A DNA stretch of 64,000 nt from Leyella lascolaii (GTDB taxonomy: Bacteria; Bacteroidota; Bacteroidia; Bacteroidales; Bacteroidaceae). The DNA lies in assembly GCF_900079775.1 (NCBI RefSeq), contig NZ_LT556035.1, forward strand, positions 80,048 through 144,047, given 5' to 3'. The notes under the pieces are model-generated. The model was not told the DNA's origin and ran no database searches. It worked only from the letters and a program-made list of their open reading frames with translations. This document shows, piece after piece, positions 23,666 through 28,056 of the stretch; position 1 is the stretch's first letter; each line of letters starts with the position of its first letter. The position numbers and the translations under genes are program-made.

Positions 23666-24250
23666 TCACCACCAATATGGCTTTTCGTCAATAAATACAA
23701 GAACCTTAGCATTCACATCACTATATCCTGTACTGTTATCAACAAGACTGTCGTTCACAAATGTCAGATAAGTCAGCAAAGGATGCGAATAACAGTACGG
23801 GCCGAGTTTGCCGTCCCTGTTATAGTAAATCTTCGGGAAATATTTTTTCTTGAAACAAGCCTTGTTCCTCTCCGACATCTTAAAGAAGTTATTCTTATAA
23901 TCTGTCTTTGAGACACCGCAGCCCATAATGAAAAACACATCCTCGCCATCCACATTGCATATGAAGCTGACAGGATATTTATCAAGCTCGGCTGGGTCTG
24001 CGAAAGGCCTGAGCACATAGCGTACAGTCGAGTCATTTATTGTCTTGCACCATACACTGGTATAAACCTTGGTACCCTCATATGCAGGATGCTGGTCTTC
24101 TCTCTTCCTGTATTCTATTATCTCCCGTTCCAATGCCTTGTTGTTAAGCACAAGACGATCGAAATCACAGTTCTTTTCCTCGCGGCATCCGCATAAAGCC
24201 AATACTAATATAACCGCAGCTACTGTATTAAACAACACCTTCGCTTTCAT
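23666..24250 (-). CDS. Lipoprotein of a local paralogous family, member 1
   Basis: A 194-residue lipoprotein: short signal sequence and lipobox LALCGC, then LVLNNKALEREIIEYRKRED. It shares a clear pattern with the other members here: LNNKxLEREII, WCKTINDSTVRY, a (C/V)DGEDVFF-type segment, KKYFPxxY, and LTFxNDSLV before a short C-terminal strand. This is the most divergent of the three closest copies and ends in KPYWW. I recognise no database family. The start could also be at 24256. Function unknown; the lipid anchor suggests the periplasmic face of a membrane. Confidence 0.7.
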   Translation of the reverse strand: MKAKVLFNTVAAVILVLALCGCREEKNCDFDRLVLNNKALEREIIEYRKREDQHPAYEGTKVYTSVWCKTINDSTVRYVLRPFADPAELDKYPVSFICNVDGEDVFFIMGCGVSKTDYKNNFFKMSERNKACFKKKYFPKIYYNRDGKLGPYCYSHPLLTYLTFVNDSLVDNSTGYSDVNAKVLVFIDEKPYWW

Positions 24251-24374
24251 AAACATTACATTTTTATTTAATTATTTACACATTATCTTCATTTCCATCC
24301 GTCGGCAGGTGCATTATCATAATTTAGCATCACCGTTTTTATACAGCCTCCATCATTTAAGAATAAAACAATCA

Positions 24375-24953
24375 CTACCAGAAATACTCCTTGTCACCCA
24401 CTCTTACTTTCACTCTGTCGAAAGGCATGCCTCGCTTATATGCCTTACTTACAAGTCTGTCGTTAATGAATGTGAGATGACAGTGTTCCGGATGGGAAAT
24501 ACCTATTACTCCTGTATTTATACGACCTTCTTCGTAAAGCTCCGGAAAATACTTTCTCTTGTAACGCTCTTTGTCTTCATCAGACCATTTAAAAGGATTA
24601 TTATTACGAAAATCCATCCTCGATGCTCCAATCTGTGAGAAAAAGAACACGTCCTCACCATCTACTCTACATATAAAAAGAATCGGATCCATATCCAAAC
24701 CATTGGGATATGACCATGGGAAAAGCGTGTATCTCACAGTAGAATCGTTTATAGTCTTACACCACACACCGGTATATACTTTAATTCCATTATAAAAAGG
24801 GTATTGATCTGGACGCCCTCTATATTTTATTATCTCCCGTTCCAACACTTTGTTGTTCAACACCATGCGGTCGAAATCACGGAACTTGTCTTTATGGCAA
24901 CCACAAAGCATTAACAATACAATAAATACGAATATTGCCTCATGCATTTTCAT
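24375..24953 (-). CDS. Lipoprotein of a local paralogous family, member 2
   Basis: A 192-residue lipoprotein with lipobox LMLCGC followed by HKDKFRDFDRMVLNNKVLER. It carries the family landmarks WCKTINDSTVRYTL, FICRVDGEDVFFF, KRKYFPELYEEG, CHLTFINDRLV and KVRVGDKEYFW. It is closest to the broken copy at 27185-27762: their C-terminal thirds are nearly identical at base level, indicating recent duplication. It is intact, so it serves as the reference for reading the frameshift. No family or function is recognised. Confidence 0.75.
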   Translation of the reverse strand: MKMHEAIFVFIVLLMLCGCHKDKFRDFDRMVLNNKVLEREIIKYRGRPDQYPFYNGIKVYTGVWCKTINDSTVRYTLFPWSYPNGLDMDPILFICRVDGEDVFFFSQIGASRMDFRNNNPFKWSDEDKERYKRKYFPELYEEGRINTGVIGISHPEHCHLTFINDRLVSKAYKRGMPFDRVKVRVGDKEYFW

Positions 24954-25146
24954 AATTATCTTTCTTTAAACCAATTTATTATTATCATTACGCCGACCCG
25001 TCATAAGACATATTCTGAGTGTATATTTGTCATTCATTATTTCCGTATTGTCTTTAAATGCACATCTTTCCATTATGCATAAACTACAACTAATGCGAGT
25101 TTACTGCCCTGGCTGATAAAATATTTATAGCACACGGATCGTTGTC

Positions 25147-25875
25147 CTATATCGATTCTATACGTCTGAGTGAAAGACACACTTTCTTGCTTATAATAAT
25201 GTTTGGCGGTGATACGGAAGATTTCAACCCGACATTTCTCTTCATGAACCGTTTCAAAGAGATAATTTCGACATCGCCAACCGCAACATCCGCGACATAC
25301 ACATTGTACGGTCTTAATATGCTGTTCCAGTTGTTCACCATTCTGCTACTCTTTACAATATCCGAGAAACAGCCTTTGTCTATATTCCTTGACAACGATT
25401 GTCTGCGCCTTATGTATTCCTCGGTCATATCAACGGTTGCCGTTCCTCCAAAACTGAGGTCTAAATAAATTTTGCACGTATCCGATATTCCTACCTCCAA
25501 AGGCAAAGAGTCCAACGCATTACTCATCATCATAAAATTCTGCTCATAGCTTGTCTTGAAGTATTTTTGCTTATAATCACCGATAAATGCCACTGTAGTG
25601 TCGTTATAATCTACCGGATGATGTACTACATAATTTATTCCTTCCTCAATTTTAACAATATCTTCATCTCCATATGCTGACTTTGCCTCTACAAGATACT
25701 CAGACAGTTCATTGCCAGATTGCAGATGAAACGAATAATATCGAGGAGAATAATAAACATTATACGATATGCAAAGCGTAGTGTCACTACCGCTTGTTTT
25801 CTTATCCACGGCTGCGTTGTCACACGACATCATCACATAAAGCAGTAATAAAAAAACTAAAATTATATTCTTCAT
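25147..25875 (-). CDS. Unrelated lipoprotein in the lipoprotein island
   Basis: A 242-residue protein with a lipoprotein signal (MKNIILVFLLLLYVMMSCDN). It shows none of the motifs of its neighbours. A central segment (LDLSFGGTATVDMTEEYIRR) and a C-terminal half with RMVNNWNSILRPYNVYVADV are distinctive but match nothing I know. The sequence is visibly A+T-rich relative to the genes beyond 29 kb. It interrupts the paralogue series, as though inserted between copies. Function unknown. Confidence 0.6.
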   Translation of the reverse strand: MKNIILVFLLLLYVMMSCDNAAVDKKTSGSDTTLCISYNVYYSPRYYSFHLQSGNELSEYLVEAKSAYGDEDIVKIEEGINYVVHHPVDYNDTTVAFIGDYKQKYFKTSYEQNFMMMSNALDSLPLEVGISDTCKIYLDLSFGGTATVDMTEEYIRRRQSLSRNIDKGCFSDIVKSSRMVNNWNSILRPYNVYVADVAVGDVEIISLKRFMKRNVGLKSSVSPPNIIISKKVCLSLRRIESI

Positions 25876-25950
25876 ATTATACTGTATTTTTATTATGATG
25901 TATATACCATATTATACATATCTCTCCCAAACTGTGAAAGGAACAACCGT

Positions 25951-26520
25951 CTAAATATAAAGTTCCTTTTCTCCTATTTTTATCTTGAACTTATCCACAT
26001 GACATCCGCGGCTGATTCTTTTGTCTATCAGCTTTCCGTTCAGAAACGTCAGATAACAGTTCTCACCGTCATATACTGTCTGATACCACTCCCTGCCTGT
26101 GCGCTGTGCCTCATACTCCTGTGGGTAATATTTCCTAAGATAATACATATAAGCCCACTCGTCCATATCAAAAAGCATATCCGGATAAGAATTTGCAGCA
26201 ACCATTGTGAACATAACGTCACGTCCGCCCACCCTGCACACGAAGTGGAAAGGTGAGACACGCCAGCTCCAGCCCTGTGAATTATAAAACAATATGTATC
26301 TTTTTATAGAATCATTAATATCCTTACAACCTACATTCACCATGAAATTTCTGTTGCCGCTCTCCTTTTCCTTCTCTTTGGTAAAAGCTATTATCTCACG
26401 CTCCAACTCCTTATTGTCAAGCTCCAGAAAATATTCTTCCGGACGCGCGTCGTGTCTGCATCCTGCAAGAAGTAACAGACATACCGATAAGAACACGACT
26501 GTCTCCAACACTTTTCTCAT
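25951..26520 (-). CDS. Lipoprotein of a local paralogous family, member 3
   Basis: A 189-residue lipoprotein (MRKVLETVVFLSVCLLLLAG then C). It is a more distant family member, retaining LDNKELEREIIAFTKEKEKE, VGCKDINDSIKRYIL, FVCRVGGRDVMFTM, LRKYYPQEYEAQ, CYLTFLNGKLIDKR and KIKIGEKELYI. The order and spacing of these blocks match members 1 and 2, so common descent is clear despite divergence. The next gene, member 4, is ten bases upstream on the same strand, suggesting the two are co-transcribed. No family name or function is recognised. Confidence 0.68.
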   Translation of the reverse strand: MRKVLETVVFLSVCLLLLAGCRHDARPEEYFLELDNKELEREIIAFTKEKEKESGNRNFMVNVGCKDINDSIKRYILFYNSQGWSWRVSPFHFVCRVGGRDVMFTMVAANSYPDMLFDMDEWAYMYYLRKYYPQEYEAQRTGREWYQTVYDGENCYLTFLNGKLIDKRISRGCHVDKFKIKIGEKELYI

Positions 26521-26530
26521 ATTATTATAT

Positions 26531-27028
26531 TTATATCCATTCCATACGTTTATCTATAATCCTGCCATACAGGAAGGTGATTATACACTTCTTGTATCTT
26601 ATCTGAGGCGGATACACTTTCTTTCCGGCTTTGTACAGGCTGTACTCTTCCGGAAAGTATTTTTTCATGAAATATTCCTTATCCTCTTTCCTCATTCTGA
26701 ACAGAGGACGTCTGCGGTCATACCCCGCCATCATCGTAACGAGAACATCATAGTCTCCCGCCTTACTCACAAATTCAAACGGATAATCCCATGAGTCTGA
26801 CGAGAAATCACAATAAAGTCCGCAACGGCTTATCGAATCATTCACCTGCCAATAACGCATGTTGACGACAAAATCTCTGCCATCATAAAGCTTTTTCTTT
26901 TCATCGGCAAAATCTATTATTGCCTTCTCCAACTCACTGTTCTTTATACTCAGCGAGTGTCTGTATTCAGTCTTGTCGCATGAGAAAAGGCATGCAAGCA
27001 CAACCGTTAATATAATAATCCTGTTCAT
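26531..27028 (-). CDS. Lipoprotein of a local paralogous family, member 4
   Basis: A 165-residue lipoprotein (MNRIIILTVVLACLFSCDKT). It keeps IKNSELEKAIIDFADEKKKL, YWQVNDSISRCGL, FVSKAGDYDVLVTM, MKKYFPEEYSLYKAG, CIITFLYGRIIDKR, and then ends early without the final strand of the other members. The start is set at 27028; an ATG at 27034 closer to the GAGGAGGAG ribosome-binding site is an alternative. A long upstream frame to 27091 is ignored because it would run through the remnant at 27069. Function unknown. Confidence 0.62.
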   Translation of the reverse strand: MNRIIILTVVLACLFSCDKTEYRHSLSIKNSELEKAIIDFADEKKKLYDGRDFVVNMRYWQVNDSISRCGLYCDFSSDSWDYPFEFVSKAGDYDVLVTMMAGYDRRRPLFRMRKEDKEYFMKKYFPEEYSLYKAGKKVYPPQIRYKKCIITFLYGRIIDKRMEWI

Positions 27029-27068
27029 TATCATCTCCTCCTCTCTATCTTTTGTAAACCATCCCACG

Positions 27069-27125
27069 CTACCTGAGATATTCCTTGTCACCGACCCTTA
27101 CCTTCACTTTGCCGAAAGAAATCCA
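27069..27125 (-). pseudogene. C-terminal stub of another lipoprotein paralogue
   Basis: About 18 codons on the minus strand read WISFGKVKVRVGDKEYLR and a stop. The block FGKVKVRVGDKEYLR matches the C-terminal end of members 2 and 5 (FDRVKVRVGDKEYFW). Nothing upstream continues the homology before the stop of the next copy at 27185, so this is a leftover of a deleted copy. Confidence 0.6.
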
Positions 27126-27184
27126 CTATTAAAGTACATTATACATCGGATTTACTACATTTCATTATACTTGTCATACAATAG

Positions 27185-27762
27185 CTACCAGAAATACTCC
27201 TTGTTCCCCACTCTTACTTTCACCCTGTCGAAAGGCATGCCTCGCTTATATGCCTTACTTACAAGACTGTCATTGATAAATGTGAGATGACATAGTTCCG
27301 GATGGGAAATACCTATTACTCCTGTATTTATACGACCTTCTTCGTAAATCTCCGAAAAATACTTTCTCTTGAAACGCTCTTTGTCTCCATCAGCCATTTG
27401 AAAGGGTTATTACGAAAATCTATCCTCGATACTCCAAGCTGGGATAAAAAGAACACATCTTCACCACCGACATTACATATAAAAAAAACCGGTCTCGTAT
27501 CTAAAGCATCAGGATATGATAGTGGGGCAAGCGTGTATCTCACTGTAGAATCGTTTATCGTCTTGCACCATACGCTGGTATAGACTTTAATTCCCTCATA
27601 AAAAGGATATTGATCTGACCGTCCTCTATATTTTATTATCTCCCGTTCCAACACCTTGTTATTCAATACCATGCGGTCAAAATCACGGAACTTGTCTTTA
27701 TGGCAACCGCAAAGAAACAACAGGAACAATACATATAACAACACCACTCTATTATTCATCAT
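27185..27762 (-). pseudogene. Frameshifted lipoprotein paralogue, member 5
   Basis: The first part (27762 to about 27394) reads a normal lipoprotein: lipobox LFLCGC, HKDKFRDFDRMVLNNKVLER, WCKTINDSTVRYTL, FICNVGGEDVFFL, NNPFKW. The frame then runs into unrelated sequence and stops at 27328. The expected continuation (DGDKERFKRKYF through KVRVGNKEYFW) lies in another frame to 27185. Comparison with member 2 shows one base missing next to 27393-27394, where member 2 has TGGTCTGA in coding sense and this copy has TGGCTGA. An in-frame codon is also missing nearby. A sequencing error cannot be excluded. Confidence 0.8.
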
Positions 27763-27855
27763 ACTTTCTAATTAATCTCTACTGTAATCAGATTATGAAT
27801 TTACGATACACTACGATTGACAAGAAAAGCCAGAATCTATATCAATTATCAATAT

Positions 27856-28056
27856 TCAATTGTACATCTGAATGATTTTTACAGTCAATGTATCAGCCGT
27901 CTGCATATTTTTCATACTCTTTTTCATCCCGTTCATCGAGCGCAAGATACAGTTACCGTAACTGTCATACTGATAAAAGACCGACGCGGTACGCGATTGT
28001 CCGGAAACATATAGTCCCGCACTGAAAAAGGCAAGTGTAATGAACAATCTTCTCAT
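27856..28056 (-). CDS. Tiny secreted protein with a YD-like motif, perhaps a truncated gene
   Basis: A 66-residue protein with a signal peptide (MRRLFITLAFFSAGLYVSGQ) and then FYQYDSYGNCILRSMNGMKK. The Y-x-YD-x-x-GN pattern recalls YD/RHS-repeat segments and the short N-terminal regions of some Bacteroidetes secreted proteins. The end, TLTVKIIQMYN, stops where such proteins often continue, so it may be the start of a decayed larger gene. It borders the lipoprotein island. Confidence that it is expressed is modest. Confidence 0.45.
   Translation of the reverse strand: MRRLFITLAFFSAGLYVSGQSRTASVFYQYDSYGNCILRSMNGMKKSMKNMQTADTLTVKIIQMYN

What the first reader, a model, noticed from the sequence alone, without database searches (positions are those of the whole stretch)
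23666..28056. Expanding and decaying array of paralogous lipoproteins
Seen: four intact minus-strand lipoproteins share ordered blocks (LEREII, INDS-x-x-RY, a G-x-D-V-x-F-like segment, KKYFP-x-x-Y, a TF-x-N/Y-x-x-L/I-(V/I) block). One further copy is frameshifted, one survives only as a C-terminal stub, and an unrelated lipoprotein is embedded. The region looks more A+T-rich than the DNA beyond 29 kb. Inference: rapid local duplication and loss, as seen for immunity-protein arrays, phase-variable surface lipoproteins or antigen families. The adjacent YD-motif protein makes an immunity array for a lost toxin conceivable but unproven.
Basis: partly seen in the sequence, partly recalled or inferred. 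Interest (0 to 1): 0.6.

Follow-up and report, generated by a model that had tools for sequence, protein, structure and literature searches.

The report
Leftover immunity lipoproteins of toxin operon
A bacterium carries a row of related small membrane-anchored proteins that most likely protect it from toxins which rival bacteria deliver into its cell envelope, left behind after the toxin gene next to them was lost.

Summary
At 23666-28056 (minus strand) lie four intact paralogous lipoproteins (family A), a frameshifted copy, a C-terminal stub and one different lipoprotein (family B). Neither family matches Pfam.

Relatives explain it. A is patchy (17 of 398 sampled genus genomes). In 8 of 21 A loci, the window included, A lies near pieces of an Rhs polymorphic-toxin operon (6 of 17 if near-identical loci count once). 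Clearest is G208: the start of the small gene that precedes Rhs is fused to the last codons of a toxin tip, then A. The window has a similar outline: a short YD-motif ORF, possibly the broken start of such a leader gene (weak match), then the array.

The embedded lipoprotein is no random passenger. B lies near A in 9 of 21 loci. Elsewhere B directly follows open Rhs genes, and in 5 of 5 such pairs the Rhs tip is Tae4, a peptidoglycan amidase.

Best reading: a toxin-less "polyimmunity" array of lipoproteins against envelope-acting toxins; B probably blocks Tae4, A an unidentified, perhaps JAB-like, tip. Polyimmunity loci are known (Zhang 2012); lipoprotein immunity was exceptional there. No function was tested.

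The parts
23666..24256 (-). family-A lipoprotein, intact (A1)
   Evidence: profile E 5e-67; lipobox LCGC by eye
24375..24953 (-). family-A lipoprotein, intact (A2), closest sister of the frameshifted copy
   Evidence: profile E 7e-71; tree clade 97/93
25147..25875 (-). family-B lipoprotein (242 aa), embedded between A copies; relatives directly follow Rhs genes with Tae4 tips
   Evidence: blastp E 4e-8 and 7e-7 to the two genes after Rhs-Tae4 in G118; profiles
25951..26520 (-). family-A lipoprotein, intact (A3)
   Evidence: E 5e-70; model pLDDT 77
26531..27034 (-). family-A lipoprotein, intact reading frame but lacking about 20 C-terminal residues (A4)
   Evidence: E 2e-57
27069..27118 (-). 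C-terminal stub of a lost family-A copy
   Evidence: 50 nt, 84% identical to the end of 24375-24953
27185..27762 (-). frameshifted family-A copy (A5)
   Evidence: two ORFs 27328-27762 and 27185-27397, E 2e-36 and 3e-22; 86-91% nt identity to A2
27856..28056 (-). 66-aa secreted YD-motif ORF, possible 5' fragment of the leader gene that precedes Rhs
   Evidence: only window ORF of 793 with Y.YD..GN...R, 0 in 200 shuffles (motif chosen after seeing this ORF); best of 793 window ORFs against a leader HMM but only E 0.0044

Best explanation
This is the surviving tail of an Rhs polymorphic-toxin operon that has become a toxin-less polyimmunity array. The ancestral order was: small secreted YD leader gene (with a T9SS sorting domain in G118), Rhs toxin gene with a swappable C-terminal tip, immunity lipoprotein, then older immunity genes left from earlier tips. 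In the window the rest of the leader and the whole Rhs gene are gone (inferred). Four intact family-A genes, a frameshifted one, a stub and one family-B gene remain. The proteins have lipoboxes, so they should be lipid-anchored in the cell envelope. There they would bind and block toxins that neighbours deliver. Family B most likely blocks Tae4-type peptidoglycan amidase tips (5 of 5 open Rhs-B pairs). Family A most likely blocks another envelope-acting tip; the only tip-like domain seen directly before an A gene is JAB-like (HTHP, by eye), in G070, with its last codons in G208 and a very short match in G104. Shown: homology, gene order, tip identity next to B, purifying selection on A. Inferred: binding, inhibition, site of action, benefit against foreign strains.
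For: (1) Rhs, tip or leader pieces near A in 8 of 21 loci (6 of 17 lineages, as G070, G104 and G208 are near-identical): G118, Rhs operon with leader upstream and two B genes and an A stub downstream; G100, Rhs core ORF starting 33 bp after A; G027, Rhs-repeat fragment just after A (blastx 4e-5) and an ORF related to an Rhs C-terminus in G012 (9e-12); G942, Rhs remnant upstream (tblastn 1.6e-5; blastx 4e-4); G070, JAB-like tip about 30 bp upstream; G208, leader start fused to the last codons of that tip (leader HMM 3.6e-4; tip 79% over 19 aa, 4e-5); G104, a 10-aa remnant (E 0.84 alone, contiguous with A); the window. (2) B near A in 9 of 21 loci; 2 bp apart in G181, G134 and G095, adjacent in G857. 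(3) B is the next gene after open Rhs genes with Tae4 tips in 5 of 5 cases: G118 1.3e-11; G006, G192, G169, G306 3e-12 to 6e-10; a sixth, broken case in G128. None of 26 Rhs regions fetched from A-bearing genomes by their Rhs core has A or B below E 0.01. (4) A-like genes in G1092 sit near a WapI-family immunity gene (2e-8) and a DUF4279 gene. (5) dN/dS 0.11-0.28 for A pairs with countable dS, except 0.45 in the short 3' part of the A2/A5 pair.
Against: In the loci examined no open Rhs gene is directly followed by an intact family-A gene, so A's toxin is not identified; in G100 and G027 the Rhs piece comes after A, not before it. The window's leader ORF is a weak match: E 0.0036 in 3898 ORFs, 0.0044 in 793 window ORFs with the next at 0.046, and 0.022 in 3898 ORFs. 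No Rhs or tip sequence was detected in the window array. 8 of 21 A loci show no Rhs, B or known immunity neighbour (4 of these lie within 0.6 kb of a contig end). Of 17 further B places fetched, 11 have no Rhs-like ORF in the region, one of which holds the broken Tae4 piece. The JAB-like domain is followed by B in G001 and by A in G070, so pairing is not one to one. One A gene (G388) is a 360-aa fusion with a TonB-like C-terminus (by eye). Three of the five Rhs genes (G006, G169, G306) run to or near the edge of the fetched stretch, so their 5' ends were not seen. Much of the genome set was chosen because it carries A or B. No function was tested.
Confidence: 0.7

Rival explanations
1. A family of variable surface-exposed lipoproteins (antigens or adhesins) expanded by duplication and gene conversion, with no link to toxins.
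For: Lipoboxes; strong divergence of paralogues; in the A2/A5 pair the 3' part is much closer than the 5' part (dS 0.15 against 0.60), as gene conversion would give.
Against: Does not explain Rhs, tip or leader pieces near A in 8 of 21 loci, nor the recurring company of B, which follows Rhs-Tae4 genes. Invertible or phase-variable elements were not searched for.
Confidence: 0.08
2. An acquired interbacterial defence (rAID-type) cassette of orphan immunity genes gathered by a recombinase, rather than the tail of a local Rhs operon.
For: Co-oriented array of short genes, low G+C, no toxin; rAID arrays are known in Bacteroidales (abstract and passages of PMC12247911).
Against: No recombinase recognised by eye among the listed window ORFs of 100 aa or more; one family dominates; a leader-like ORF sits at its head; the G208 deletion points to an Rhs operon.
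Confidence: 0.1
3. Family A are accessory or chaperone lipoproteins of Rhs operons (export or anchoring of the toxin), not immunity proteins.
For: A is near Rhs remnants and B but was not seen as the first gene after an open Rhs tip.
Against: A is absent, at E below 0.01, from 26 fetched Rhs regions, and is kept after toxin loss under purifying selection, which suits immunity better.
Confidence: 0.1

Closest known systems
Polyimmunity loci (Zhang et al. 2012, PMC3482391; passages read)
   Same: Tandem, co-oriented, closely spaced immunity genes without toxin genes between them; one family dominating (homogeneous) plus another; explained there as a defensive backup.
   Different: Here the genes are lipoproteins of two families without Pfam matches. 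That paper says all but a few immunity proteins are cytoplasmic and calls Imm65 the only one in its collection that appears to be a lipoprotein.
Imm65 with Tox-JAB-1 (Zhang et al. 2012, passages)
   Same: Bacteroidetes immunity lipoprotein linked to Rhs proteins with a JAB-type tip; a JAB-like HTHP ORF precedes A in G070 and B in G001.
   Different: No immunity-named Pfam family is among the matches of 13 A and 9 B members up to E 1; whether the library holds an Imm65 model was not checked; its YxC motif was not tested.
Tae4-Tai4 amidase-immunity pairs (Tai4 recalled)
   Same: B follows Rhs genes whose tip matches Pfam Tae4.
   Different: B (about 230 aa, lipoprotein) shows no Tai4 match; the toxin tip sits on an Rhs scaffold, with FG-GAP, SpvB or TcdB-middle domains in some.
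rAID orphan-immunity arrays of Bacteroidales (PMC12247911; abstract and passages)
   Same: Array of short co-oriented orphan immunity genes in the same bacterial order (order inferred).
   Different: No tyrosine recombinase recognised nearby; one family dominates; leader-like ORF at the head.
Orphan immunity downstream of Rhs1 in Serratia (PMC10539506; passages)
   Same: Displaced immunity genes kept behind an Rhs gene; one was shown there to protect against another strain's toxin.
   Different: NADase toxins there; Tae4 or JAB-like tips here; no toxin gene is left in the window array.

Membership tests
Polyimmunity locus | several tandem genes, mostly paralogous, not interrupted by toxin genes | tested here: met
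   four intact A, one frameshifted A, a stub and B; no Rhs or Tae4-like ORF among them
Polyimmunity locus | same orientation and short intergenic gaps | tested here: met
   all minus strand; gaps of 10-193 bp
Polyimmunity locus | genes encode immunity proteins | tested here: inconclusive
   B is the next gene in 5 of 5 open Rhs-Tae4 cases; A by association only; no assay
Rhs operon relic | YD leader gene at the head | tested here: inconclusive
   motif unique in the window but HMM E only 0.0044 in window ORFs
Rhs operon relic | Rhs or tip sequence left in the window array | tested here: not met
   none found by blastx or tip HMM
rAID | associated tyrosine recombinase | tested here: inconclusive
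   none recognised by eye in the 64-kb ORF list; not scanned by profile
rAID | conserved intergenic sequence motifs | not tested
   six intergenic stretches printed but no motif search run
Imm65 | N-terminal lipobox | tested here: met
   by eye in A and B
[quoted passage not shown]
   JAB-like HTHP ORFs in G070 and G001 by eye; no Pfam JAB match
Tai4 | sequence match to the Tai4 family | tested here: inconclusive
   no Tai4 match for B up to E 1; that Pfam holds a Tai4 model is recalled, not checked

The most novel reading that the evidence does not exclude
The array is an evolving, toxin-free shield in the cell envelope: two unrelated lipoprotein families, reshuffled by duplication and gene conversion, that together neutralise a spectrum of peptidoglycan-cutting and JAB-like Rhs tips from other strains. 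It would include a second, lipid-anchored immunity family against Tae4 unrelated to Tai4.
Probability: 0.35. Interest if true: 0.6.

Novelty: new variant of a known kind. Interest (0 to 1): 0.42.

Why it matters
It offers a function for two Pfam-less lipoprotein families and names a testable toxin partner for one of them (Tae4 tips on Rhs). It extends the polyimmunity idea, described mainly for cytoplasmic proteins, to lipid-anchored proteins. Related genomes show stages of toxin loss with the immunity gene kept, which makes the origin of orphan immunity genes directly testable.

Tried and rejected
Searches that found nothing: plasmids and phages with one A protein each, and viral contigs with one A protein: no relative. 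Pfam and NCBIfam with window proteins: A and B gave only weak matches of no meaning. PDB by sequence with the A profile: best E 0.018, not credible. With the G001 JAB-like ORF: matches to a short repeat in designed proteins, not used. Fold search with the A model (pLDDT 77, five sequences): Foldseek best E 0.21; VIA best Z 3.6 over 73 residues, among cystatin-like, NTF2-like and other small alpha+beta folds, not used. The family-B single-sequence model had pLDDT 35 and was not used.

Rows dropped before counting: the hits in G003 and G026 (E about 2e-6, a 327-aa frame; G003 no hit). In one search G496, G616, G059 and G823, G832, G949, G1008 (E 2.5e-4 to 9.3e-4, partial). In one search the Rhs match near G184 (E 0.015). 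In one search the Tae4-like hit in L102 (E 0.003, an ORF next to Rhs) and the A-like hit in L078 (0.034). Whole-genome searches score only the best few candidates per genome, so the counts are lower bounds.

Considered and rejected: housekeeping lipoprotein (patchy, varied contexts); chance co-location of A and Rhs (upper-bound estimate for 2 of 17 A genes within 3 kb of an Rhs core: P 0.004; it uses rounded genome sizes and Rhs-core hits only).

Literature: searches. 'Rhs + Tae4 + lipoprotein immunity' gave 0 papers; 'polyimmunity + Bacteroidetes + lipoprotein' gave 2. Claims of novelty rest on these alone.

Full report
WHAT IS THERE. On the minus strand, 23666-28056 holds, in order of transcription: a 66-aa secreted YD-motif ORF, a frameshifted family-A copy, a stub, A4, A3, a family-B lipoprotein, A2 and A1. 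Gaps are 10-193 bp. G+C is 38.6% against 46.2% elsewhere in the window. The profile finds no other A copy in this genome. Neither family has a Pfam match up to E 1 beyond scattered single-member noise.

RELATIVES OF FAMILY A. A is found in 17 of 398 genomes of the genus (own genome included), 9 of 399 of the family (four of them weak partial hits) and 4 of 393 of the order (all but the own genome weak). One more came from a MAG contig titled CTSoil_026 (L012). After dropping weak hits I examined 21 loci: 20 genomes and L012. Two or more copies stand together in 4 of 20 genomes: the window's, G857, G942 and G1092. In G857 the order is [unknown gene][A][B][unknown gene][A]; in G942 it is repeated triplets of a membrane protein, a secreted protein and A. 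So arrays of A arose more than once, but most A genomes hold one copy.

LINK TO RHS OPERONS. In G118 a 2079-aa Rhs gene with a Tae4 tip has a small leader gene with a T9SS sorting domain upstream and two B genes plus an A stub downstream. G208 has the same kind of leader directly before another Rhs gene. In G070 a 110-aa JAB-like ORF (HTH..S..D pattern by eye) ends about 30 bp before A. In G208 a near-identical A gene is preceded by the start of a leader gene fused to the last codons of that same tip (leader HMM E 3.6e-4 among 3898 ORFs, though 0.36 with the earlier HMM; tip tail 79% over 19 aa, E 4e-5). In G104 only about ten codons of the tip remain (E 0.84 alone; contiguous with A). This reads as deletion of Rhs between leader and tip end, with A kept. 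G070, G104 and G208 are one lineage. Rhs remnants also lie near A in G100 and G027 (after A) and in G942 (before it). The window has a similar outline, but its leader ORF is a weak match: E 0.0036 among 3898 ORFs; best of 793 window ORFs at 0.0044, and 0.022 in the 3898-ORF set. Its motif Y.YD..GN...R, chosen after seeing it, is unique among the 793 and absent in 200 shuffles. No Rhs or tip sequence was found in the window array.

FAMILY B. The embedded lipoprotein is related to the two genes after Rhs in G118 (blastp 4e-8, 7e-7). A profile finds B in 22 of 289 genus genomes and near A in 9 of 21 A loci (window, G070, G208, G181, G134, G095, G100, G118, G857), 0 to 5 kb away. G181, G134 and G095 are one lineage. 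I fetched 17 further B places. Four have an open Rhs gene directly upstream (G006, G192, G169, G306), and all four carry a Tae4 tip (E 3e-12 to 6e-10). With G118 that is 5 of 5 such pairs. The 5' ends of the Rhs genes of G006, G169 and G306 lie at or near the edge of the fetched stretch. Two more places have Rhs-like pieces (G231, G012), and 11 of 17 have none in the region; one of these, G128, has a broken Tae4 piece before B (E 4e-13). In 26 Rhs regions fetched from A-bearing genomes for their Rhs core (two overlap, some are cut by contig ends), none has A or B below E 0.01. The B of the G070 A locus is 96% identical to the B after Rhs-Tae4 in G306. Against one-to-one pairing: in G001 a JAB-like ORF, not Tae4, precedes B.

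SELECTION AND HISTORY. dN/dS by counting is 0.11-0.12 between near-identical A genes, 0.24-0.28 between tandem copies in G942 and G857, and 0.25 in the 5' part of the A2/A5 pair (0.45 in its short 3' part); most other pairs are saturated. In the A2/A5 pair the 3' part is closer (dS 0.15) than the 5' part (0.60), which suggests gene conversion. A1, A2 and A5 form a clade (100/100); A3 and A4 are unresolved.

MECHANISM. Tae4 is a peptidoglycan amidase acting in the periplasm (recalled), so its inhibitor should be there; a lipid anchor fits. I infer that B binds Tae4 tips and that A binds another envelope-acting tip. No toxin gene was found at this locus, so any benefit would be against neighbours' toxins.

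KNOWN KINDS. Zhang et al. 2012 (PMC3482391, passages read) define polyimmunity loci and call Imm65, paired with Tox-JAB-1 in Bacteroidetes, the only apparent lipoprotein in their collection. Their features of tandem, co-oriented and uninterrupted genes are met here; immunity function is inferred. rAID arrays (PMC12247911, abstract and passages) have a recombinase, and I recognised none here. In Serratia an orphan immunity protein behind Rhs1 does protect (PMC10539506, passages).

VERDICT. A real, explainable feature: a toxin-less lipoprotein polyimmunity array, probably the tail of an Rhs operon. It is a new variant of a known kind, with one named and testable toxin partner.

Noticed in passing
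L160 6564-8143 (G000:C5:638884-640091): Two B-like genes in tandem in the same genome (E 7e-8 and 3e-7), close to genes that look by eye like a peptide exporter and a bacteriocin-type leader peptide.
   Followed up: partly
L067 8220-12992 (G942): Tandem triplets of a membrane protein, a secreted 189-aa protein and family A; the two partner families have no credible Pfam match and could be further immunity genes.
   Followed up: partly
L046 8196-9278 (G388): Family-A N-terminus fused to a C-terminus that reads by eye like a TonB-type domain, also present in the next gene.
   Followed up: no
L052 9014-9202 (G022) and L037 9077-9730 (G027): Family-A pieces lie in or beside remnants of what looks by eye like the same TPR-like gene in two genomes.
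   Followed up: no
L116 8792-9574 and L154 1928-2302 (G001): Two secreted proteins share an N-terminus but differ in the C-terminus, each followed by a B gene: a possible small polymorphic toxin without Rhs.
   Followed up: partly
L072, L073, L074, L075 (own genome): Four Rhs loci elsewhere in the same genome, none with a Tae4 tip, A or B by the profiles.
   Followed up: partly
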